In this document: in pieces, positions 8,864 to 18,213 of the stretch
How the letters are laid out: every line of letters begins with the position of its first letter
How positions within the stretch are numbered: position 1 is the first letter of the stretch
From: an uncultured Acidimicrobiia bacterium
Lineage (GTDB): Bacteria > Actinomycetota > Acidimicrobiia > Spongiisociales > JAENVV01
Reading direction: 5' to 3'
NCBI GenBank assembly: GCA_905480085.1
Contig: CAJQPD010000172.1
Location: 1 to 23,864, forward strand
DNA length: 23,864 bases
Program-made: the position numbers and the translations under genes
The notes under the pieces: model-generated
Database searches by the model: none
Told to the model about the DNA's origin: nothing
Seen by the model: the letters and a program-made list of their open reading frames with translations, nothing else

Positions 8864-9970
8864 ATGAAAGCTCGTACCTGGGCAACTATGAGCGTCGTGC
8901 TGGCGCTTGTACTGACTGCATGCGGAGGGGCCGACCCGGCCGACACCACCACCGCTGCAGCCGACACCACCACCACCACCAAAGCCGAGACCACCACCAC
9001 GGTGGCCCCGACCACCACCACCGAAGCGATGGCCACGGTTGGCAGCCCTGAGAACCCGATCAAGGTGCTCTTCGTTCCGTCCGCTGAAGCGGCCATTATC
9101 GTGACCGGCGGTGAATTGATGGCAGCTGCCCTCAATGAAGCCACTGGTTTGACCTACGAGGTCGTCGTCCCGACCGACTACTCGGCAACCATCGAAGAGA
9201 TGTGCGCCTCCCCTGAAAACACCATGGGCTTCATCCCGGGTGCCGCCTACGTTGAAGCTTCCGCACTATGCGGGGTCGACGTAGCTTTCAAGGCAGTCCG
9301 TTTCGGATGGCCGGTCTACTGGGCCCAGATCCTGGTGCCCCGTGACAGCGACATTGCATCCATCGAAGACCTCGAAGGCAAGAGCTGGGCGTTCCCCGAT
9401 GACGGCTCCACCTCGGGATTCCGGGTGCCCAGCTTGATGTTCTCAGAAGCTGGCGTCACACCTGGCGAGCAGGTCGAGACCGGTGGACACCCGCAGGCCG
9501 CTTTGGCCGTGTACAACGGTGAAGCCGACTTCGCTACGACGTTCTTCAGCCCACCACTGTTGCCAGATGGCAACTGGGACGAGACGATGGCGCCAGAATT
9601 GGCTGATGACATCATCGCCACCTGTGGCCCGAACGAAGACGACTCAAGGTTGCTTTGTGGAGCCGACGGTGAGTATCGCATTTTGGATGCTCGCGCTTCG
9701 GCCCGCACCGACGCTCCTGACATCATGCAAAAGGTGAAGATCTTGATGATCTCGCCGGGTATTCCGAATGACACCTTGTCGTTCGGTCCCGATTTCCCAG
9801 CCGACGTGCGGGCCACGATCGCTGCGGCGCTCGTCGCCTTCGCCGAGACGGATGCATGGGCCGAGTCCATCGGAAACCAGGACTTCTACGGCTGGACGGG
9901 CATCGCCCCGGCCACCGATGACGAATACGACGGATTGCGCGCTATTGAGGCGCTGCTGGCTGACCAGTAG
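8864..9970 (+). CDS. phnD: Phosphonate-type ABC transporter substrate-binding lipoprotein (PhnD-like)
   Basis: The 368-residue protein starts with a lipoprotein signal peptide whose lipobox is LTAC (C20). A Thr-rich linker (about residues 28-55) follows, then a periplasmic-binding fold of the PhnD/phosphite-phosphonate type. The anion-binding STSGF (182-186) and the NTMGFIPGAAYVEA segment match the PhnD fold. It should be anchored outside the membrane and deliver substrate to PhnE/PhnC. AAGGG precedes the ATG by 7 nt. Extra Cys residues in SPENTMGF-ALCGVD and CGPNEDDSRLLCG could form disulfides. Phosphonate, phosphite, phosphate ester or another oxyanion are all possible; no C-P lyase or other phosphonate catabolic gene lies in the window. 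Confidence 0.87.
   Translation: MKARTWATMSVVLALVLTACGGADPADTTTAAADTTTTTKAETTTTVAPTTTTEAMATVGSPENPIKVLFVPSAEAAIIVTGGELMAAALNEATGLTYEVVVPTDYSATIEEMCASPENTMGFIPGAAYVEASALCGVDVAFKAVRFGWPVYWAQILVPRDSDIASIEDLEGKSWAFPDDGSTSGFRVPSLMFSEAGVTPGEQVETGGHPQAALAVYNGEADFATTFFSPPLLPDGNWDETMAPELADDIIATCGPNEDDSRLLCGADGEYRILDARASARTDAPDIMQKVKILMISPGIPNDTLSFGPDFPADVRATIAAALVAFAETDAWAESIGNQDFYGWTGIAPATDDEYDGLRAIEALLADQ
8943..9025 (+). repeat. Low-complexity ACC-rich tract encoding the Thr-rich linker
   Basis: Repeated ACC triplets in phnD encode runs of Thr with Ala, Glu, Pro and Lys. This is a coding linker that spaces the binding domain from the lipid anchor and is common in acidimicrobial lipoproteins. The tract may vary in length between strains. 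Confidence 0.7.
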
Positions 9971-9994
9971 CCAGAAACGCATATTGAAGTCGAT

Positions 9995-10022
9995 GTGGGG
10001 GCGGGACTTGTCCCGCCCCCAC
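9995..10022 (+). terminator. Perfect 12-bp GC-rich hairpin between phnD and phnC
   Basis: GTGGGGGCGGGA (9995-10006), loop CTTG, then the exact complement (10011-10022). It lies 24 nt after the phnD stop and has no U-tract. It can act as a partial terminator or as a 3'-end stabiliser that leaves more phnD mRNA than phnCE mRNA, as seen in other binding-protein transport operons. The hairpin is seen directly; its role is inference. Confidence 0.75.
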
Positions 10023-10035
10023 CCTTGTCTAAGGT
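10008..10035 (+). promoter_or_regulatory. Candidate leaderless promoter for phnC
   Basis: -35-like TTGTCC (10008-10013), beginning in the hairpin loop, is followed after 16 nt by -10 TAAGGT (10030-10035), which ends 6 nt before the phnC ATG. The AAGG/AGGG bases in the same stretch could alternatively serve as a ribosome site on a readthrough transcript. Confidence 0.45.
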
Positions 10036-10041
10036 AGGGCG

Positions 10042-10794
10042 ATGCTCAAAGTAGAACACCTCACCAAGGTGTATGACAACGGTACGGTGGCACTCGAAGA
10101 CGTGAGCTTTGAAGTTCCCAGCGGACAGTTCTTAGCTGTTATTGGCCTATCCGGGTCAGGGAAGTCCACGCTACTGCGGTGCATCAACCGTCTGATTGAA
10201 CCAACCGAGGGGGTCATCACTTGGAACGGAGTCGACGTCACGAACGCCGGTCCTGATGAGATGCGCCGAATCCGGCGCAACATCGGCATGGTGTTCCAAC
10301 ACTTCAACTTGGTCAATCGCTCGAAAGTAATCACCAACGTCTTGGCCGGGTCACTTGGCTACGTAAACCCAGTACTAAGCGTCATCAACCGTTTCCCGCA
10401 AGAGCACAAGACCCGCGCCATCGCCCAGCTTGAACGGGTCGGCCTCGCCGACAAAGCTTATGTGCGGGCCGACACCCTCAGCGGTGGACAGCAGCAGCGG
10501 GTCGGTGTGGCTCGCGCCATGATGCAAGAACCGGGCATGTTGCTCTCCGACGAACCAGTAGCCAGCCTCGACCCTGTCTTGGCTCATTCCATCATGCAAT
10601 ACCTCGAGCAAATCAACCAGCAAGACGATGTGATGGTGTTGTGCAGCCTGCACTTCCTCGACCTCGTGCATCGCTACGCCGATCGAGCAATTGCGCTCAA
10701 CGACGGCAAACTGGTCTTCGAGGGCCCACCGGCGTCGATCGACGACGCCAAGTTCAAAGAGATCTACGGCAAAGAGGCCGAACGTGTCGGCTGA
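10042..10794 (+). CDS. phnC: Phosphonate-type ABC transporter ATP-binding protein (PhnC)
   Basis: The 250-residue ATPase has Walker A GLSGSGKST (35-43), Q-loop Q86 (MVFQHFNL), the PhnC-typical stretch NVLAGSLGYVNPVLSVINRF (99-118), signature LSGGQQQRVGVARAMM (146-161), Walker B LLSDEPVASLDP and H-loop CSLHFLDLVHRYADR. The segment around GSLG and the SLDP after Walker B are characteristic of PhnC rather than general amino-acid importers. It powers uptake through PhnE with substrate from PhnD. It has an ATG start at 10042 and its end overlaps the GTG of phnE by 11 nt. The gene sits 71 nt after phnD, across the hairpin. Confidence 0.93.
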   Translation: MLKVEHLTKVYDNGTVALEDVSFEVPSGQFLAVIGLSGSGKSTLLRCINRLIEPTEGVITWNGVDVTNAGPDEMRRIRRNIGMVFQHFNLVNRSKVITNVLAGSLGYVNPVLSVINRFPQEHKTRAIAQLERVGLADKAYVRADTLSGGQQQRVGVARAMMQEPGMLLSDEPVASLDPVLAHSIMQYLEQINQQDDVMVLCSLHFLDLVHRYADRAIALNDGKLVFEGPPASIDDAKFKEIYGKEAERVG

Positions 10795-12691
10795 GCCTTC
10801 CACGACTCGAGGCGGCGATGCCAGCCAGCCCAAGCGACGCACGCGCCGCCAGTCGATCGTCCTGGGACTAGCCATCATCATCGGTCTGATCACCTACGCT
10901 TATGGCTTCCAGGTAACCCAGATCGACCTCGGCGAGATCAGTTCCGAGACTCGACGCGGTCAGCTCGTGCGGGTGCTGCGCGAGATCGCTCGCCCTGAGC
11001 TACTCACCTACGATCGCATTCCCACCAACACCGACAACCCCCTATACCTGCCGTGTCCCGCTGGTGGCTACACCGCACCCGACCCAACCGAGGACCGCTA
11101 CCTGACCGTCGAACCGGCATGCGCTGAGCCGGGAGACACCGTTGTCGTGACCGGGACCGGTTTCGCTGCCAACTCGCGAGGCTCGATCAACCAGGTACCG
11201 CCCGATGGCGTCCTCGAACTGAAGATCGGAGAATTCTTCGCCGATCAAGACGGTAACTTCCAAGTGGAAGTTGACACCCGCGAACGAGCCAACGAATCCG
11301 CCCAGCTCATCAGAGTCCAAACCAACGAGCGAGTGGGGTCGATCTTCTCGCCGGTCGACGTCGTGAGTAATGCCGGAGAACTCCGGGTCTCTCCGCGCAT
11401 CAGCAAAGCAAGCATAGACACCTGGGACAAGATCATTGAGACAGTGTTCCTCGCTCTGCTCGCCACCACGTTGGGTACCGCATTGGCGGTTCCACTCAGC
11501 TTCCTGGCTGCTCGAAACATCATGCAGGACATCACGACCAACGTCGCCAAGCTTGCCCTCCAACTGCTGGGGCTTCCGTTGGGCGTTGCCATTGGCATTG
11601 CTTTGTCTCGTACCGCGCGCCGCCTAGCCGACCAACTAACCGACAACGCGTTGTTGCTGATCCTGGGGTTGATCATCGTCCCAGCGGCCGCCTTCTTCGC
11701 GGCACGATTCGCGTTCCCGCCAGTGGACGACGACCCTCCCACCCCGTCAGAACGTGCCCAACGGGGGGCGGTCGCCCTGGTGGCGGCCATCGCCGGAATT
11801 CTTGGCATCCTGCTGGCGGCCGCAGCCCTCATGCAGGTAGGTGGTTGGCTAGACGACTCACTTGGCGCCTTCGGGTTCTTGGGCTCCTTCCTTGAGAAGA
11901 GCGGAGAAATCGCCGCGGCGATCACGACGCTGCTGTCAGCACTCCTCGGCGCAGCCGTCCTGGCGACGATGGCTGGCCGACTCGCCTCGTTCATCCAAGC
12001 CCACACGCCGGCGAAGGTAAGTCAGGCTGCCACCTACCCACTCGCCGCTCTCTCCGGAGCGGTGATTGCGGCGATTATCGGAGCGGGCGTCGCCTGGCTC
12101 TACCGGTTCACTGACCCGATGTCGGTCATCTGGTATCCGGCGATCACCGGGGCGATCATCGGGCTGTGGCTCACCTTCCGCAATCGAGGTCGATCAACGG
12201 TTCATATCGGGCTTGTTGTCTACTACATCTCGAGAACCATCTTCAACTCACTCCGATCAATCGAGCCGCTCGTGATGGTGATTGTGTTTGTCGTCTGGGT
12301 CGGACTTGGACCATTCGCAGGCGCTTTGGCCTTGGCCGTTCACACCGTTGCTGCCCTCGCCAAGCTCTACTCAGAGCAGGTTGAAAGCATTTCCGAAGGC
12401 CCGATCGAAGCGGTCAAGGCTACCGGCGCCACCAGGCTGCAAACCGTGGTCTATGCGGTCGCGCCACAAATCGTCCCGCCCTATATCGCCTTCACGCTCT
12501 ACCGGTGGGACATCAACGTCCGCATGTCCACCATTATCGGGTTCGCCGGCGGTGGTGGTATCGGGTTCGTCCTCCAGCAGAACATTCGACTCCTGAATTA
12601 CTCGGCAGCCTCGGTCAACATGCTGGCGATCGCCATCGTGGTGGCCTCCATGGACTATCTAAGCTCGAGCATTCGCCAGCGAGTCGTTTAG
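10784..12691 (+). CDS. phnE: Enlarged PhnE-type ABC transporter permease
   Basis: The 635-residue protein is about twice the size of an ordinary PhnE (roughly 260-290). Order of parts: Arg-rich N-terminus; TM about 25-42; a soluble segment about 43-215, predicted outside the membrane, containing a beta-sandwich-like PGDTVVVTGTGF (116-127); the first core helix with TVFLALLATTLGTALAVPLS (220-239); about 225 extra residues (246-470), mostly hydrophobic with several additional TM candidates; then the usual PhnE core with SLRSIEPLVMVIVFVVWVGL (489-508) and an EAA loop EAVKATGATRLQTVVYAVAP (542-561). The start is GTG 10784, with GAGG 6 nt upstream and an 11-nt overlap with phnC. TM counts are by eye. 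Function as the PhnCD partner is well supported by context; the insert roles are unknown. Confidence 0.88.
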   Translation: MSAEPSTTRGGDASQPKRRTRRQSIVLGLAIIIGLITYAYGFQVTQIDLGEISSETRRGQLVRVLREIARPELLTYDRIPTNTDNPLYLPCPAGGYTAPDPTEDRYLTVEPACAEPGDTVVVTGTGFAANSRGSINQVPPDGVLELKIGEFFADQDGNFQVEVDTRERANESAQLIRVQTNERVGSIFSPVDVVSNAGELRVSPRISKASIDTWDKIIETVFLALLATTLGTALAVPLSFLAARNIMQDITTNVAKLALQLLGLPLGVAIGIALSRTARRLADQLTDNALLLILGLIIVPAAAFFAARFAFPPVDDDPPTPSERAQRGAVALVAAIAGILGILLAAAALMQVGGWLDDSLGAFGFLGSFLEKSGEIAAAITTLLSALLGAAVLATMAGRLASFIQAHTPAKVSQAATYPLAALSGAVIAAIIGAGVAWLYRFTDPMSVIWYPAITGAIIGLWLTFRNRGRSTVHIGLVVYYISRTIFNSLRSIEPLVMVIVFVVWVGLGPFAGALALAVHTVAALAKLYSEQVESISEGPIEAVKATGATRLQTVVYAVAPQIVPPYIAFTLYRWDINVRMSTIIGFAGGGGIGFVLQQNIRLLNYSAASVNMLAIAIVVASMDYLSSSIRQRVV

Positions 12692-12694
12692 TCC

Positions 12695-13696
12695 ATGTAC
12701 AAGCGACTTCGAGCCGAGCGCGAGGCAGAGGAATTCAGTCGGCTGTCACCAGCCGCCACCAAGGCAGCAGATTCGCGCGGGCGGGCCATCGATGAGAAAC
12801 CCGACACCTACCGAACCGCTTTCCAACGCGATCGCGACCGCATCATGCACTCGAAGGCCTTCCGACGCCTCAAACACAAGACCCAGGTCTTCATGAACCC
12901 CGAGGGTGACCACTTTGTCACCAGGCTCACCCACACTCTCCAGGTCACCCAGGCGGGTCGGTCGATGGCTGCTGCGTTGGGCTTGAACGAAGACCTAACC
13001 GAAGCCATCTGTCTTGGCCACGATGTCGGGCACTCCCCGTTTGGCCACACCGGTGAGGATGCGTTGACCCCCTATGTGGAGGGTACCTGGCTTCACTCGG
13101 AGCAATCGGTCCGCATTATGACGGTCCTGGAGCCGCTCAATCTGACCTGGGAAGTCCTTGATGGCATCCGGGCTCATTCCTGGAAGATCGACCCTCCTCC
13201 GGCAACCCAGGAGGGCTATCTCTGTCGGTACGCCGACCGAATCGCCTACCTCACCCATGACGTCCAGGATGCATTGCGCGAAGGGGTGATCCGCTTCGAG
13301 GATCTTCCCAGCAAAGGGATAACCACCTTCGGTGACGAGCCGGGATCGGCCTGGATCCGCACCATGATCGAGGCTGTCGTGGACGGGTCAAATGAAGCGG
13401 GCCGGGTAACGATGCGAGCCGACGTTCTCGAGGCGATGCACGAACTGCGCGATTTCATGTTCGACCGGGTCTATCTACGTCACGACACGAATGGCCAACG
13501 GGAACGAGCGGTTCGAATCATCTCGCAACTCGTCGATTACTACGGCCGTCACCCTGACGAGATACCGGCCACCTATCAGGTCGATGATGCTTCGGACCTG
13601 ACGAAGGCGATCGACTACGTGTCCGGAATGACCGACCGATATGCCCTGCGCGAACACGACCGACTGTTCAAACCGCGGCTCTTTCCCGACGACTAA
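12695..13696 (+). CDS. dgt: Deoxyguanosinetriphosphate triphosphohydrolase-like HD-domain protein
   Basis: The 333-residue protein matches bacterial dGTPase-like proteins, which cleave dNTPs to nucleoside plus tripolyphosphate. Visible family features are DRDRIMHSKAFRRLKHKTQV (46-65), RLTHTLQV with H80, the HD block GHDVGHSPFGHTGE with H109/D110, and the C-terminal metal site CRYADRIAYLTHD. It starts 3 nt after the phnE stop, so it is probably read from the same transcript, although a functional link to phosphonate uptake is not evident. Substrate range cannot be judged; actinobacterial members are usually annotated dGTPase-like. No ribosome site is clear at the ATG. Confidence 0.93.
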   Translation: MYKRLRAEREAEEFSRLSPAATKAADSRGRAIDEKPDTYRTAFQRDRDRIMHSKAFRRLKHKTQVFMNPEGDHFVTRLTHTLQVTQAGRSMAAALGLNEDLTEAICLGHDVGHSPFGHTGEDALTPYVEGTWLHSEQSVRIMTVLEPLNLTWEVLDGIRAHSWKIDPPPATQEGYLCRYADRIAYLTHDVQDALREGVIRFEDLPSKGITTFGDEPGSAWIRTMIEAVVDGSNEAGRVTMRADVLEAMHELRDFMFDRVYLRHDTNGQRERAVRIISQLVDYYGRHPDEIPATYQVDDASDLTKAIDYVSGMTDRYALREHDRLFKPRLFPDD

Positions 13697-13738: not shown

Positions 13739-14743
13739 ATGCGATCACGAATTACCGGGACCGGTTCGTTCACGCCTGACCGGGTGATATCCAATCTCGA
13801 ACTGGCTGATGCGCTTGGCACTACTGCCGACTGGATCGAGCAACGCAGCGGTATCCAGGAACGACACTGGGTGACCGGCCGAACGACGACCTCGGACCTG
13901 GCATTCGAAGCCTCCGTACGGGCCATGGAGGCCGCCGGCATCACCGCCCAGGACCTTGACATGATCCTGCTCGCCACGATCAGCCCCGACCATGACTTTC
14001 CGGGAACGGCCTGTTTCCTTCAACAGAAGCTCCACGCACCGGAGATTCCTGCGATTGATGTCCGGCAACAGTGTTCGGGCTTCATCTATGCGCTGTCAAT
14101 GGCTGATCTCTACATTCGGGCAGGTCAAGCAAAGACCGTTCTGGTCGTTGGTGCCGAAATCCACTCCAAGGGCCTCGACATCTCTCCGCGGGGGCGAGAT
14201 GTCTCGATCTTGTTTGGTGACGGCGCCGGAGCGATAGTGCTGGAGATGATTGAAGCCCCGTCGCCCGAGGACTCTCAGATCTACTCGACGCACATCCACT
14301 CAGACGGACGTGGCGCCAAGAGCCTGTGGGCCGAAGCCCCTGGGCAAGCGATGGCCGGTCACCGGATCACGGTTGAGGACATTGAAGCGGGCCGCCACTT
14401 CCCCATCATGGACGGACGGCGGGTCTTCATGAACGCGGTAAAGCGCATGCCTGAATCCATCAACGAAGCGCTCGATGCAAACGGTGCGAAGCTCGATGAG
14501 GTCGAATGGTTCTTCTTCCATCAAGCCAACCTGCGCATCAACGAAGCCGTTGCCAAACGGCTCGAAATCGACGGTGCCCGCGTGTTCAACACCATCGCCC
14601 GATTCGGGAACACCACCGCGGCCACCATCCCGCTCGGTATTGATACGGCCGTCGCCGAAGGCGCCCTCACCAAGGGACAACTGGTAGCGCTCTCAACGTT
14701 CGGAGCGGGTTATACGTGGGGATCGGCGCTCCTACGGTTCTGA
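13739..14743 (+). CDS. fabH: Beta-ketoacyl-ACP synthase III (FabH family)
   Basis: The 334-residue thiolase-fold synthase carries the FabH triad Cys112 (RQQCSGFIYAL), His261 (FFFHQANLRI) and Asn291 (RFGNTTAATIPL), plus LFGDGAGAIVLE (158-169). FabH condenses an acyl-CoA starter with malonyl-ACP to begin fatty-acid synthesis. Compared with short FabH it has a longer stretch between about 182 and 228 (HSDGRGAKSLWAEAPG ... MDGRRVF), a feature of a non-E. coli branch. It opens a run that continues with three lipid-modification genes, so it may supply a particular acyl chain for that pathway instead of bulk synthesis; this is inference. It probably has its own leaderless promoter with an overlapping palindrome. 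Confidence 0.92.
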   Translation: MRSRITGTGSFTPDRVISNLELADALGTTADWIEQRSGIQERHWVTGRTTTSDLAFEASVRAMEAAGITAQDLDMILLATISPDHDFPGTACFLQQKLHAPEIPAIDVRQQCSGFIYALSMADLYIRAGQAKTVLVVGAEIHSKGLDISPRGRDVSILFGDGAGAIVLEMIEAPSPEDSQIYSTHIHSDGRGAKSLWAEAPGQAMAGHRITVEDIEAGRHFPIMDGRRVFMNAVKRMPESINEALDANGAKLDEVEWFFFHQANLRINEAVAKRLEIDGARVFNTIARFGNTTAATIPLGIDTAVAEGALTKGQLVALSTFGAGYTWGSALLRF

Positions 14744-14778
14744 AGCCTTAATCCGGCCGATCCTTGGCAACGCATAAC

Positions 14779-16029
14779 ATGGTGCGTGTAGCAATAGTTG
14801 GAACCGGAATTTCAGGGTTGGGCGCCGCCCACCGTCTGATGGGGGTGGACCACGGCCTCAAGAATGATGTCGACCTGACCCTCTATGAGTCTTCTGACTG
14901 GGTCGGCGGACATAGCCATACTGTCGACATCGAGGTTGCCGGCACATCCCTGGCAGTCGACACGGGATTCATCGTCTACAACACCCGGACCTATCCACTC
15001 CTGACATCCTTGTTCGCCGAACTCGGCGTAGAGACGGAGCCGAGCAACATGTCGTTCGCAATCGCCGGATCTCCGGTCGAATACGAGGGAAGCCTGGCAG
15101 GGATGGCAGCCTCCCCGTCAGCCCTGTTGCGGGTCAGCCATTGGCAGATGATCAGAGATATCCTCCGCTTCAACCGCTACATTCAGACCGTCGACATTGA
15201 CGACCCCGAGCTTCGCCTCGGAGACCTCACCGCCGGTTACTCAACCGCGTTTCGCGAACGATACCTTCTCCCGATGGGGGCGGCGATCTGGTCAACGCCG
15301 GCGACCGAAATGGCCGACTACCCGGCCGCCACGCTCGCTCGATTCTTCCGCAACCACGGCCTCGTCCAGCTTCGCAACCGGCCGCAGTGGCGAACCGTCT
15401 CCGGTGGTAGCCGACGATACGTTGAGAAGCTGAGTGCATCCTTCTCCAACAAGATCCGCCTCGATGAACCAGTCGTCAGCGTTCGGCGCGACTCGTCTGG
15501 AGTCGAGATCCTTAGTAGCTCCGGCTCAGAACGGTTCGACCAGGTCATCTTCGCTACCCACGCCGACACCACCCTGGCTCTACTCGGATCCGAATCAACA
15601 TCACAGGAACAGTCGGTCCTCGGAAGTTTTGCCTACTCCCGGAACCGTGCGGTCCTCCACACCGATCCGCGCTTCATGCCAAAGCATCGCCGTGCCTGGG
15701 CAAGTTGGAACGTCAGGACCGGTCAGGAGGGTGACCTCCCGTCTGTCACGTATTGGATGAACCGTCTTCAGAATCTGCCAACCGACGTACCGGTGTTCGT
15801 ATCGCTCAACCCGTCGGAAGAACCCGACCACCAGTTGGGCTCGTGGGACTACGATCATCCTATGTTCGATCGGGCGGCCATTTCGGCACAAGCTGAACTG
15901 CCTTCCATACAAGGGACCAAACGTTCCTATTACTGCGGTGCCTATGCCCGCTACGGCTTTCATGAGGATGGTTTGATGTCAGGATATGCGGCGGCCGACG
16001 CCCTCCTTCGTCAACCGGCCTCCCAATGA
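14779..16029 (+). CDS. FAD-dependent amine-oxidase-like protein (COG2907)
   Basis: The 416-residue flavoprotein has an N-terminal Rossmann motif VAIVGTGISGLGAA (4-17), ribose-binding E37, GGHSHTVDIEV and VDTGFIVYNTRTYP (60-73), then NMSFAI, ILRFNRYIQ and a C-terminal YYCGAYARYGFHEDGLMSGYA FAD-closing segment. This is the COG2907 type, which is genetically tied to DUF1365 and a cyclopropane-synthase-like methyltransferase in many bacteria. A fatty-acyl desaturase or oxidase role on membrane lipids is suggested for such clusters but not certain. ATG at 14779 gives MVRVAIVGTG; no ribosome site is evident, and a TTG 15 nt earlier is possible. Its stop overlaps the next start as ATGA (16026-16029). 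Confidence 0.9.
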   Translation: MVRVAIVGTGISGLGAAHRLMGVDHGLKNDVDLTLYESSDWVGGHSHTVDIEVAGTSLAVDTGFIVYNTRTYPLLTSLFAELGVETEPSNMSFAIAGSPVEYEGSLAGMAASPSALLRVSHWQMIRDILRFNRYIQTVDIDDPELRLGDLTAGYSTAFRERYLLPMGAAIWSTPATEMADYPAATLARFFRNHGLVQLRNRPQWRTVSGGSRRYVEKLSASFSNKIRLDEPVVSVRRDSSGVEILSSSGSERFDQVIFATHADTTLALLGSESTSQEQSVLGSFAYSRNRAVLHTDPRFMPKHRRAWASWNVRTGQEGDLPSVTYWMNRLQNLPTDVPVFVSLNPSEEPDHQLGSWDYDHPMFDRAAISAQAELPSIQGTKRSYYCGAYARYGFHEDGLMSGYAAADALLRQPASQ

Positions 16030-16784
16030 ACTTGCTCTACGTCGGGAAGGTCAGCCACCGACGCGCCCGGCCAAAAGAACATTCGTTCTCCTATGGCGTG
16101 TACTGGATGTTGCTCGACCTCGACGACCTCGACAGCGCCAACAGGGTCAGCCGGCTGTTCTCCGTAGACAGACCAAATGTGTATTCGTTTCGACAGGGTG
16201 ACCATGGTCCGCGGGACGGATCCTCTTTGAAGGCATGGATCACCAGCCAGACCGCCCACGCAGGAATCGAAATCGGCCGGGTTCGTTTGTTGACGATGCC
16301 GCGCCTGTTTGGTTACGCCTTCAACCCGCTCAGCATATGGTTTTGTGACGATCCGTCCGGGAACCTGGCGGCCGTGCTGTATGAAGTACGCAATACGTTC
16401 GGGGAGTACCACAGCTATCTCCTTCCGGTCGACGACGCGTCCCCGGTCGTACACGAGTGGGACAAACAGTTCTTTGTCTCCCCGTTCATCGACATGGGGG
16501 CTCGCTACCGATTCGCGCTCTCGGCGCCCGGAGAACTGATGAAACTCACGGTTTCCGAGTCCGACATGAACGGTCACCTCTTCAGTGCCGTCATGTCTGG
16601 CCGACGGGCACCTCTGACCACCAGAACGCTCGTCCGGTTGCTCGTATCACATCCATTGATTACGTTCAGAGTGATGATCGGTATCCACTGGCAAGCTCTC
16701 CTTCTCTGGCGCAAGGGCGCCGAGTACCGCCGACGCCCGGAAGCTCCCTCGTCAGAGGTTTCAATGCCGTTGGTCGATCGATGA
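16026..16784 (+). CDS. DUF1365 (COG3496) family protein
   Basis: The 252-residue protein matches DUF1365, with the N-terminal VGKVSHRRARPKEHSFSYGV, the core RVRLLTMPRLFGYAFNPLSI, EVRNTFGEYHSYLLP, and KQFFVSPFIDMGARYRF. DUF1365 has no settled biochemical function. It almost always accompanies COG2907 and a Cfa-like methyltransferase, suggesting a shared lipid-modification pathway. A hydrophobic C-terminal helix (about 205-228) may touch the membrane. It overlaps both neighbours by 4 nt (ATGA at each end), so the three genes should be made in fixed proportion. The 3' end carries a near-perfect palindrome at the next start codon. Confidence 0.9.
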   Translation: MNLLYVGKVSHRRARPKEHSFSYGVYWMLLDLDDLDSANRVSRLFSVDRPNVYSFRQGDHGPRDGSSLKAWITSQTAHAGIEIGRVRLLTMPRLFGYAFNPLSIWFCDDPSGNLAAVLYEVRNTFGEYHSYLLPVDDASPVVHEWDKQFFVSPFIDMGARYRFALSAPGELMKLTVSESDMNGHLFSAVMSGRRAPLTTRTLVRLLVSHPLITFRVMIGIHWQALLLWRKGAEYRRRPEAPSSEVSMPLVDR

Positions 16785-16792
16785 TCGATCGA
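16774..16792 (+). repeat. 19-bp palindrome spanning the DUF1365/methyltransferase junction
   Basis: TCGATCGAT, central G, ATCGATCGA. As RNA it can fold into a 7-bp stem with the 5-nt loop AUGAU, which holds the start codon of the methyltransferase and the overlapping stop; flanking G-U pairs could extend the stem. This may set translational coupling. The symmetry is seen directly; any role is inference. Confidence 0.6.
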
Positions 16793-17962
16793 TTGGTGCT
16801 TCGCATTCTCGGCGCAGGCGTGGCGGTCGGGTCACTGAACGTGACCTTCGCCGACGGTTCGAAAGGAGCCTTGACGGGATCCGAGCCTGGACCGAATGCC
16901 ACCGTACGTCTCATCAAAGCCGGGTCGCTTCGACGGGTGTTGTGGGGCGGATCCAATGCCATGGTCGAGGCATACATGGCAGGCGAGTTCGAGCCGGACG
17001 ATCTCACCGGGTTCCTCTTCTTCGCTGCGCTGAACCAGAAGCATTGGGCCGAGCGACATCCGCTCCTCTATGCGCTTGGCCGCACAATGGGCGCCTGGTT
17101 GCCAACCAGCAATCGGACCGTGGCGGTTGACTCGATGGTCGATCACTACAACCTTGGCAATGAATTCTACGAAGCCTGGCTGGACCCGTCCATGACATAC
17201 TCGGCCGCCCGCTTCAGCCTCGCCGGCACTTCTGACGACGTCTCACTCGAAGACGCCCAGCAAGCAAAATACGCTCGCCTCGCAGAACTGGCCGACCTCC
17301 AACCCGGTCAGTCCGTGCTCGAGATCGGCACCGGATGGGGAGGGATGGCTCGGTACGCCGCCAGCCTCGGATGCAACGTGACAACGTTGACGATTGCCGA
17401 GGCTCAGGCCCAGTACGCCGTCGACAAAAATCGGATCGCCGAACTCGACGGCATGATCGACGTTCAACTACTCGACTACTCGAAGGTTGAGGGCCAGTTC
17501 GATCGAGTCGTCTCCATCGAGATGATCGAGTCGATCGACGACTCACGGTGGCCAGACTATTTCGACACGATCGCCAGGGTCCTCAAGCCGGGCGGCCGAG
17601 CCGGCCTCCAGGTCATAGTCATCAACGACGAGTTCTACGACTCCTACCGCACGAACGAAGACTTCATCCGCCGCTACATCTTTCCTGGGGGGATGGTTCC
17701 GAGCCCGCGAGTCCTCAAAGATCTCACCTCGAGGAGCGGCCTGACCTGGGAGATCGAGGAACGATTCGGGCTCGACTACGCCCGCACCTTGAAGGAGTGG
17801 CAGGAGCGATTCGAATCGGCCTGGCTCCAGATCGCCCCGCTCGGATTTGACGAAACCTTTCGGAAAATGTGGAAGACATACCTGTCCTACTGCGAGGCTG
17901 GTTTTCTTGCGGGTCGAATTGACGTAACGCAGTTCAGTCTCACGCGCCCCGCAAACATCTAA
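16781..17962 (+). CDS. Cyclopropane-fatty-acyl-phospholipid-synthase-like SAM methyltransferase (non-canonical)
   Basis: The 393-residue protein has the Cfa layout: an N-terminal lipid-binding part, DHYNLGNEFYEAWLDPSMTY (121-140), the SAM loop VLEIGTGWGGMARYAA (179-194), RVVSIEMIESI (242-252) and YIFPGGMVPSPR (299-310). Against E. coli Cfa (aligned from memory) the bicarbonate-site residues E239, I268 and Y317 correspond to E250, I279 and Y333, but C139 is A142 and H266 is Q277. Methyl transfer to an unsaturated acyl chain is likely; cyclopropane ring closure is doubtful. With COG2907 and DUF1365 it may make a methyl-branched or further oxidised chain, as in bacterial furan fatty acid pathways (analogy only). 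ATG 16781 overlaps the previous stop (ATGA). Confidence 0.9.
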   Translation: MIDRLVLRILGAGVAVGSLNVTFADGSKGALTGSEPGPNATVRLIKAGSLRRVLWGGSNAMVEAYMAGEFEPDDLTGFLFFAALNQKHWAERHPLLYALGRTMGAWLPTSNRTVAVDSMVDHYNLGNEFYEAWLDPSMTYSAARFSLAGTSDDVSLEDAQQAKYARLAELADLQPGQSVLEIGTGWGGMARYAASLGCNVTTLTIAEAQAQYAVDKNRIAELDGMIDVQLLDYSKVEGQFDRVVSIEMIESIDDSRWPDYFDTIARVLKPGGRAGLQVIVINDEFYDSYRTNEDFIRRYIFPGGMVPSPRVLKDLTSRSGLTWEIEERFGLDYARTLKEWQERFESAWLQIAPLGFDETFRKMWKTYLSYCEAGFLAGRIDVTQFSLTRPANI

Positions 17963-17994: not shown

Positions 17995-18213
17995 ATGTCA
18001 GATTTCATCGAGCAGGGCGTCGTAAAGATCATCGAAGTCATCGGAATATCCGAAGTGAGCTTTGAGGATGCCATCCAGCGCGGGGTTGCCAAGGCGTCAG
18101 AGTCGGTCAAGGGCATCACCGGTGTCGAGGTACAGAACATGACCGCTCGCGTGAAAGACGGCAAGGTCACCCAGTATCACGCCAACATGAAGTTGGCCTT
18201 CGCCGTCAGGTAG
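17995..18213 (+). CDS. Dodecin-like protein lacking the flavin-contact residues
   Basis: The 72-residue protein follows the dodecin fold and length: VVKIIEVIGISEVSFEDAIQ (strand-turn-helix), a second half with GVEVQNMTARVKDGKV, and the closing strand YHANMKLAFAV. Dodecins form hollow dodecamers that usually bind flavins. Aligned from memory with the Halobacterium protein, Trp36, which stacks on the flavin ring, is Gly43 here, and Gln55, which contacts the ring, is His62. A standard flavin-storage role is therefore unlikely; a different ligand or metal, as proposed for some mycobacterial dodecins, is possible. It lies 32 nt after the methyltransferase gene, possibly in the same transcript. Confidence 0.85.
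   Translation: MSDFIEQGVVKIIEVIGISEVSFEDAIQRGVAKASESVKGITGVEVQNMTARVKDGKVTQYHANMKLAFAVR

What the first reader, a model, noticed from the sequence alone, without database searches (positions are those of the whole stretch)
13739..17962. FabH plus COG2907, DUF1365 and a Cfa-like enzyme: a candidate unusual-lipid pathway
The COG2907-DUF1365-Cfa-like trio is fused translationally by two ATGA overlaps and starts downstream of a dedicated FabH. Together they look like synthesis of a modified membrane acyl chain: a FabH that may set the chain type, a flavin oxidase, an unknown protein and a methyltransferase. The trio recurs in many bacteria, but its product in actinobacteria is not settled. Alphaproteobacterial furan fatty acid synthesis is one precedent with related enzyme types.
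Basis: partly seen in the sequence, partly recalled or inferred. Interest (0 to 1): 0.7.

Follow-up and report, generated by a model that had tools for sequence, protein, structure and literature searches.

The report
Actinobacterial furan fatty acid operon
Three overlapping genes in this likely actinobacterial genome match, in family and order, the three known bacterial furan fatty acid enzymes (UfaD, UfaO, UfaM), and are predicted to build oxygen-ringed membrane lipids that would protect against singlet oxygen; the FabH gene beside them is likely an ordinary chain-starting enzyme.

Summary
In detail: FabH (13739-14743), a flavin oxidase (14779-16029), DUF1365 (16026-16784) and a Cfa-like protein (16781-17962), with two ATGA overlaps. 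The trio is the UfaD-UfaO-UfaM set, and matches Cereibacter johrii orthologues at 42, 36 and 41% identity. In 44 of 50 related UfaO-bearing genomes the three genes lie together in this order; in 4 the UfaM lies elsewhere; 2 are cut by contig ends. The third gene is not a typical cyclopropane synthase: the bicarbonate ligand His266 of E. coli Cfa is Gln, as in C. johrii UfaM and all 44 trio-linked copies that could be read, while E. coli Cfa and four unlinked or second copies keep His. A likely monoene source, a soluble acyl-ACP desaturase, is in the same genome. A furan fatty acid pathway is the best reading; no product has been shown. The FabH idea is weaker: it is a second, E. coli-like FabH, beside the trio in all 5 held genomes of the genus, but outside the genus the two do not co-occur more than chance (2 genomes, 3.6 expected). 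A dodecin gene just downstream was missed. New member of a known pathway, not a new kind.

The parts
13739..14743 (+). second FabH (beta-ketoacyl-ACP synthase III), E. coli type, catalytic Cys/His/Asn kept; neighbour, role in the pathway unproven
14779..16029 (+). UfaD-like FAD-dependent acyl desaturase (COG2907 type, Pfam Amino_oxidase)
   Evidence: 42% to C. johrii UfaD
16026..16784 (+). UfaO-like furan-forming oxygenase (DUF1365); AlphaFold2 model, pLDDT 92
   Evidence: (36% to C. johrii UfaO)
16781..17962 (+). UfaM-type SAM-dependent methylase of monounsaturated acyl chains (CMAS family), Gln277 in place of E. coli Cfa His266
   Evidence: (41% to C. johrii UfaM)
16026..16029 (+). ATGA stop/start overlap ufaD-ufaO
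16781..16784 (+). ATGA stop/start overlap ufaO-ufaM
17609..17611 (+). CAG codon, Gln277 of UfaM, position of the bicarbonate ligand His266 of E. coli Cfa
17995..18213 (+). dodecin (flavin-binding family), beside the trio in all five held genomes of the genus

Best explanation
The genes at 14779-17962 are relatives of ufaD, ufaO and ufaM, and are predicted to turn a monounsaturated acyl chain of membrane phospholipid into a methylated furan fatty acid in three steps. Inferred step 1: the UfaM-type enzyme puts a methyl group from SAM on the cis double bond, and the double bond moves over as trans instead of closing a cyclopropane, perhaps because a bicarbonate ligand is missing. Inferred step 2: the flavin enzyme UfaD adds a second, conjugated double bond, with O2 as likely electron acceptor. 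Inferred step 3: the DUF1365 protein UfaO puts one oxygen from O2 across the diene and closes the furan ring. The substrate would come from the soluble acyl-ACP desaturase found in the same genome; if that enzyme makes 9-cis-18:1, the product would be a 7M7-type furan fatty acid rather than the 9M5 type made from vaccenate. The likely use is a membrane scavenger of singlet oxygen. FabH is likely a second chain-initiating enzyme and a passenger of the locus; dodecin might buffer flavin nearby.
For: 42%, 36% and 41% identity to UfaD, UfaO and UfaM of Cereibacter johrii, whose ufaD operon has downstream frames of 401, 186 and 245 aa, against 402, 186 and 245 aa given for RSP1089, 1088 and 1087. 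Function of the C. sphaeroides and R. palustris enzymes: PMC7380195. Same gene order as the consecutive R. palustris numbers RPA2571, 2570, 2569. Contiguous UfaD-UfaO-UfaM in 44 of 50 UfaO-bearing genomes; 4 lack an adjacent UfaM, 2 are cut by contig ends; all 4 have a Gln-type UfaM elsewhere. Gln at Cfa His266 in 44 of 44 trio-linked copies read, in C. johrii UfaM, and in all of the 120 nearest homologues listed; His in E. coli Cfa and 4 unlinked or second copies. His266 is one of three side chains that hold the catalytic bicarbonate (PMC11387697, passages). UfaD/UfaO tree: the window's order groups with four alphaproteobacterial loci, C. johrii among them, apart from the other class members, local support 0.989. 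Acyl-ACP desaturase in all 4 genus genomes tested, the window's own included. Three alphaproteobacterial relatives lie beside ECF sigma and ChrR genes.
Against: No product, expression or enzyme assay. UfaO identity to a tested family is only 36%. Gln at 266 is not exclusive: second CMAS copies in L040 and L041 carry it yet branch beside His-type enzymes, and the UfaM clade (46 of 53 tree members, monophyletic) has local support of only 0.60. The window has Ala at Cfa Cys139; of 44 trio-linked copies 31 have Ser, 10 Cys, 3 Ala. Three of four order members outside the genus that were checked (G066, G078, G098) carry UfaO with no PF00487, PF03405 or FabA hit, so the substrate source is unclear there. 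No ECF/ChrR lies beside the window's trio.
Confidence: 0.75

Rival explanations
1. The pathway is a UfaD-UfaO-UfaM relative that ends differently: it makes a methyl-branched trans-monoene, a conjugated diene, or another oxidised chain because the DUF1365 protein has drifted from UfaO.
For: DUF1365 identity to C. johrii UfaO is only 36%; PMC7380195 leaves open what other DUF1365 proteins do.
Against: The three genes are contiguous in 44 of 50 genomes; the window groups with alphaproteobacterial UfaDO.
Confidence: 0.15
2. The Cfa-like gene makes ordinary cyclopropane fatty acids and the two partners are accessory.
For: CMAS family; best solved relative is E. coli Cfa; Glu239 and Tyr317 kept.
Against: The bicarbonate ligand His266 is Gln in the window, in C. 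johrii UfaM and in all 44 trio-linked copies read; separate CMAS copies in three related genomes (L094, L095, L096) keep His.
Confidence: 0.05
3. The set makes 10-methyl saturated chains like tuberculostearate (BfaAB/TmsAB).
For: Likely actinobacterial setting; a methylase beside a flavin enzyme (PMC7791843, passages).
Against: The flavin partner matches Amino_oxidase and shows no FAD_binding_4 hit (that BfaA belongs to FAD_binding_4 is recalled); the bfa operon is described as two genes, without DUF1365, and its methylases were chosen for a conserved bicarbonate site, which is altered here.
Confidence: 0.03
4. FabH is a true part of the pathway and supplies the acyl chain type used by the trio.
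For: Adjacency on those contigs was not seen.
Against: The whole neighbourhood, dGTPase included, is syntenic in the genus. Of 133 order genomes outside it 19 have this FabH and 25 have UfaO; 2 have both, on different contigs; 3.6 expected (hand count). It keeps the E. coli triad and Phe87.
Confidence: 0.12

Closest known systems
UfaD-UfaO-UfaM furan fatty acid pathway of Cereibacter (Rhodobacter) sphaeroides and Rhodopseudomonas palustris (PMC7380195, passages and section 4)
   Same: Same three families, same order as R. palustris RPA2571-2570-2569 by number; Gln at Cfa His266 as in the C. johrii UfaM.
   Different: Likely Acidimicrobiia host; 36-42% identity to C. johrii; Ala at Cfa Cys139 (Ser in C. 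johrii); FabH and dodecin flank it, no ECF/ChrR; the substrate is likely made by an acyl-ACP desaturase.
Halomonas sp. YLGW01 ufa genes (PMC12089945, passages)
   Same: Three consecutive ufa genes; annotated as cis-vaccenate 11-methyltransferase plus ufaD and ufaO.
   Different: Gammaproteobacterial (recalled); sequences not compared here.
E. coli Cfa cyclopropane synthase (6bqc)
   Same: CMAS family, 35% identity, Glu239 and Tyr317 ligands kept.
   Different: His266 ligand replaced by Gln, Cys139 by Ala; linked to UfaD and UfaO.
Arabidopsis UFAMD1 / UFAO1 (PMC10940516, passages)
   Same: Proposed plant counterparts: one protein matching both UfaM and UfaD, and a DUF1365 protein.
   Different: Three separate genes here; assignment in the plant rests on sequence similarity in the passages seen.
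LkcE amine oxidase (6f7l)
   Same: Nearest solved relative of the flavin protein (E 7e-34).
   Different: Acts in lankacidin synthesis, not on acyl chains (recalled).

Membership tests
UfaD-UfaO-UfaM furan fatty acid pathway | All three families present and full length | tested here: met
   Pfam and BLASTP against C. johrii orthologues
UfaD-UfaO-UfaM furan fatty acid pathway | Genes co-localised in order D-O-M as in R. palustris | tested here: met
   in the window; 44 of 50 related genomes; R. palustris order taken from locus numbers
UfaD-UfaO-UfaM furan fatty acid pathway | UfaM-type Gln at Cfa His266 (marker proposed here) | tested here: met
   Gln277 in the window, Gln in C. johrii UfaM
UfaD-UfaO-UfaM furan fatty acid pathway | Makes methylated furan fatty acids from a monounsaturated chain with O2 | not testable with these tools
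   needs GC-MS
UfaD-UfaO-UfaM furan fatty acid pathway | A source of monounsaturated chains in the genome | tested here: met
   FA_desaturase_2 in G000, contig C66; its regiospecificity is unknown
Cyclopropane fatty acid synthase | Three bicarbonate ligands Glu239, His266, Tyr317 | tested here: not met
   His266 is Gln; ligand roles
BfaAB/TmsAB 10-methyl pathway | FAD_binding_4 type reductase partner (recalled) | tested here: not met
   partner hits Amino_oxidase and Rossmann-type families, no FAD_binding_4 at E 0.001
RpoE-ChrR singlet-oxygen regulon | ECF sigma and ChrR genes beside the trio | tested here: not met
   none among 20 window frames scanned with Pfam; present in L052-L054. The rest of the genome was not searched for ChrR
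FabH (KAS III) | Cys112, His244, Asn274 triad (E. coli numbers, recalled as catalytic) | tested here: met
Calycin-type barrel (nitrobindin, fatty-acid-binding protein) for UfaO | Clear fold match | tested here: inconclusive

The most novel reading that the evidence does not exclude
In this acidimicrobial genus the locus is a photo-oxidation shield: UfaM, a cyclopropane synthase turned into a double-bond-shifting methylase by losing a bicarbonate ligand (His to Gln), feeds UfaD and a barrel-shaped oxygenase UfaO to make a new 7M7-type furan lipid from 9-cis chains, while a dedicated FabH supplies chains and dodecin holds free flavin, a source of singlet oxygen.
Probability: 0.15. Interest if true: 0.65.

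Novelty: new member of a known kind. Interest (0 to 1): 0.42.

Why it matters
It gives a likely product class to a gene trio that databases name oxidase, DUF1365 and cyclopropane synthase, in a likely Acidimicrobiia lineage for which my one search found no furan fatty acid paper. It offers a single-residue marker (Cfa His266 to Gln) that could tell UfaM-type methylases from true cyclopropane synthases, and the marker is testable by point mutation in laboratory enzymes. UfaO has no solved relative by sequence, and the confident model gives a first structural handle on an oxygenase whose cofactor was unknown in 2020 (PMC7380195).

Tried and rejected

Dropped before counts. Residue table, 54 rows: frames under 250 aa were not read; L130 gave 224 aa and L150 51 aa because of a stop inside the matched stretch; L053 (Azospirillum) is broken into two frames, reads Arg and is not among the 44. 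The 44 trio-linked copies are 42 class loci plus the R. tropici and Streptomyces plasmid loci; the window itself is counted apart. L039 and L053 were left out of the UfaM tree. L032, L036, L039, L047, L091 and L146 were left out of the UfaD/UfaO tree. For the UfaO model I used 63 of the 120 proteins listed, picked by hand, the window's included. Only 8 of the genomes were searched for desaturases and FabA. Confidence went from 0.76 to 0.75 on re-check, for the weak support (0.60) of the UfaM clade.
Full report
What is there. The window is one contig of a 2.17-Mb, 393-contig, 68% complete genome. Its order is likely Acidimicrobiia (Actinomycetota): order member G245 has a contig of 14420 bases, the length listed for UfaM homologue P0294, which its source names Acidimicrobiia, and hits P0019, P0061 and P0263 bear the same class name. 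This is inference; no taxonomy of the window was given. On the + strand run dGTPase (12695-13696), FabH (13739-14743), an Amino_oxidase-family flavin protein (14779-16029), DUF1365 (16026-16784), a CMAS-family protein (16781-17962) and dodecin (17995-18213); a K-Cl cotransporter-like gene follows on the other strand. Both ATGA overlaps are real.

What the trio is. PMC7380195 (passages; section 4) reports that UfaM methylates cis-vaccenate to 11Me-12t-18:1, UfaD desaturates this to 11Me-10t,12t-18:2, and UfaO, a DUF1365 protein, makes the furan with oxygen from O2; the R. palustris genes RPA2569, 2570 and 2571 sufficed for these products in a C. sphaeroides triple mutant. To compare letters I fetched Cereibacter johrii, a named relative of C. 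sphaeroides: its ufaD operon carries downstream frames of 401, 186 and 245 aa against 402, 186 and 245 aa given for RSP1089, 1088 and 1087. The window proteins are 42% (UfaD), 36% (UfaO) and 41% (UfaM) identical to it over nearly full length. That C. johrii stands in for C. sphaeroides is an assumption; the C. sphaeroides sequences themselves were not fetched.

Conservation. DUF1365 occurs in 29 of 198 class genomes and 30 of 138 order genomes, 50 different genomes in all (9 shared). In 44 of 50 loci UfaD, UfaO and UfaM lie together on one strand in this order; 2 loci are cut by the contig end before UfaD; 4 (G098, G160, G264, G265) have no UfaM beside them. Each of those four has a Gln-type UfaM elsewhere (in G265 a partial one), like C. 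johrii. A tree of UfaD plus UfaO (48 sequences) puts the window's order in one clade with four alphaproteobacterial loci, C. johrii among them, with the other class members outside (local support 0.989). This fits transfer between these groups and raises the chance that function is shared.

Methylase or cyclopropane synthase. In E. coli Cfa a tightly bound bicarbonate touches Glu239, His266 and Tyr317 and is thought to take the proton that closes the ring; mutating the ligands lowers activity (PMC11387697, passages). With the E. coli sequence as ruler, 48 of 54 rows have Gln at 266: 44 trio-linked copies, two unlinked UfaMs (G098 and C. johrii) and second CMAS copies in L040 and L041. Five have His: E. 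coli Cfa, the unlinked copies L094, L095 and L096, and a second copy in R. tropici. One (L053, broken) reads Arg (recount). All of the 120 nearest homologues listed for the window protein, itself included, have Gln. The window has Ala142, Glu250, Gln277 and Tyr333 at Cfa 139, 239, 266 and 317. Cautions: Gln is not exclusive to the UfaM clade (L040, L041); that clade is monophyletic but weakly supported (46 of 53 tree members, 0.60); and that Gln causes methylation instead of cyclopropanation is my inference. I saw no report of this difference, within these limits: 'bicarbonate' and 'residue' do not occur in PMC7380195, 'UfaM' and 'glutamine' do not occur in PMC11387697, 'bicarbonate' does not occur in PMC12089945 or PMC10876521; searches were read as listings otherwise.

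Substrate. No FA_desaturase (PF00487) hit in 8 genomes tested; FabA in one of 8, inside a 901-aa frame of G152. A soluble acyl-ACP desaturase (PF03405) is in the window's genome, in the three other genus genomes tested and in G090, but not in G066, G078 or G098. Its frame holds two E-x-x-H motifs as in di-iron desaturases (motif recalled). If it makes 9-cis chains, the steps of the known pathway give a furan between C8 and C11, 7M7 in the paper's naming; this is inferred.

FabH and dodecin. Genus member G046 has another FabH inside a FabD-FabH-FabG-ACP-FabF-type cluster (L088); the window's FabH is 39% identical to it and 43% to E. coli FabH, with Cys112, His244, Asn274 and Phe87 of E. coli kept. 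It lies beside the trio in all 5 held genus genomes, with dodecin downstream of the trio (G050 split over two contigs). Outside the genus, of 133 order genomes 19 have this FabH (E 1e-100 or better), 25 have UfaO and 2 have both, on different contigs (3.6 expected; hand count). In the stretches fetched round those 19 FabH genes (5.5 to 10 kb, some cut by contig ends) no trio gene or dGTPase was found. Against this, of 15 FabH hits with 65% identity or more and a longest contig of at least 5 kb, 8 share an exact contig length with a listed UfaO or UfaM hit (hand count), so a wider linked clade may exist that I could not fetch. FabH stays a possible, unproven partner.

Setting and use. Three alphaproteobacterial relatives lie beside ECF sigma and ChrR genes (L052, L053, L054). 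PMC7380195 states that cells lacking ChrR make more 9M5-FuFA, that it vanishes on exposure to singlet oxygen and that cells without it die from singlet oxygen. In the class, 48 wide loci were compared for recurrent neighbours: SDR in 15, SRPBCC-type in 8, a B12-binding HTH regulator like CarH (name recalled) in 8, RskA-type anti-sigma in 7, MFS in 6, ECF sigma in 5, fasciclin in 4; each family was named from one member. None of these was found beside the window's trio. Light or singlet-oxygen control is plausible for the wider group and untested here.

Verdict. A furan fatty acid operon of the known Ufa kind, in a likely Acidimicrobiia genome, with a useful residue marker.

Noticed in passing
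17995-18213: Dodecin gene directly downstream of the trio, 93-97% identical in the four other genus genomes; no paper held both 'dodecin' and 'furan fatty acid'.
   Followed up: partly
L139 12520-13341 and seven loci clustered with it: A B12-binding HTH regulator like CarH recurs near the trio in the class, with ECF sigma, RskA-type anti-sigma and fasciclin genes: a possible light or oxygen-stress setting (Pfam run on one member of each family).
   Followed up: partly
L040 4514-5824, L041 4793-6085: A second CMAS copy next to the trio with Gln at Cfa 266 but branching beside His-type enzymes; perhaps a further methylation step.
   Followed up: no
G066, G078, G098: Genomes 95-98% complete with UfaO but no PF00487, PF03405 or FabA hit: the source of unsaturated chains is unknown.
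   Followed up: no
L055 (Streptomyces sp. NBC_00158 plasmid): Complete trio plus DUF1295 on a linear actinobacterial plasmid.
   Followed up: no
L053 (Azospirillum thermophilum plasmid): The UfaM gene beside UfaD and UfaO is broken into two frames.
   Followed up: no
8864-12691: Phosphonate-type ABC transporter genes upstream of dGTPase, syntenic in genus members G046, G050 and G152.
   Followed up: no
1046-2179: tRNA-queuosine alpha-mannosyltransferase domain (QTMAN_N).
   Followed up: no
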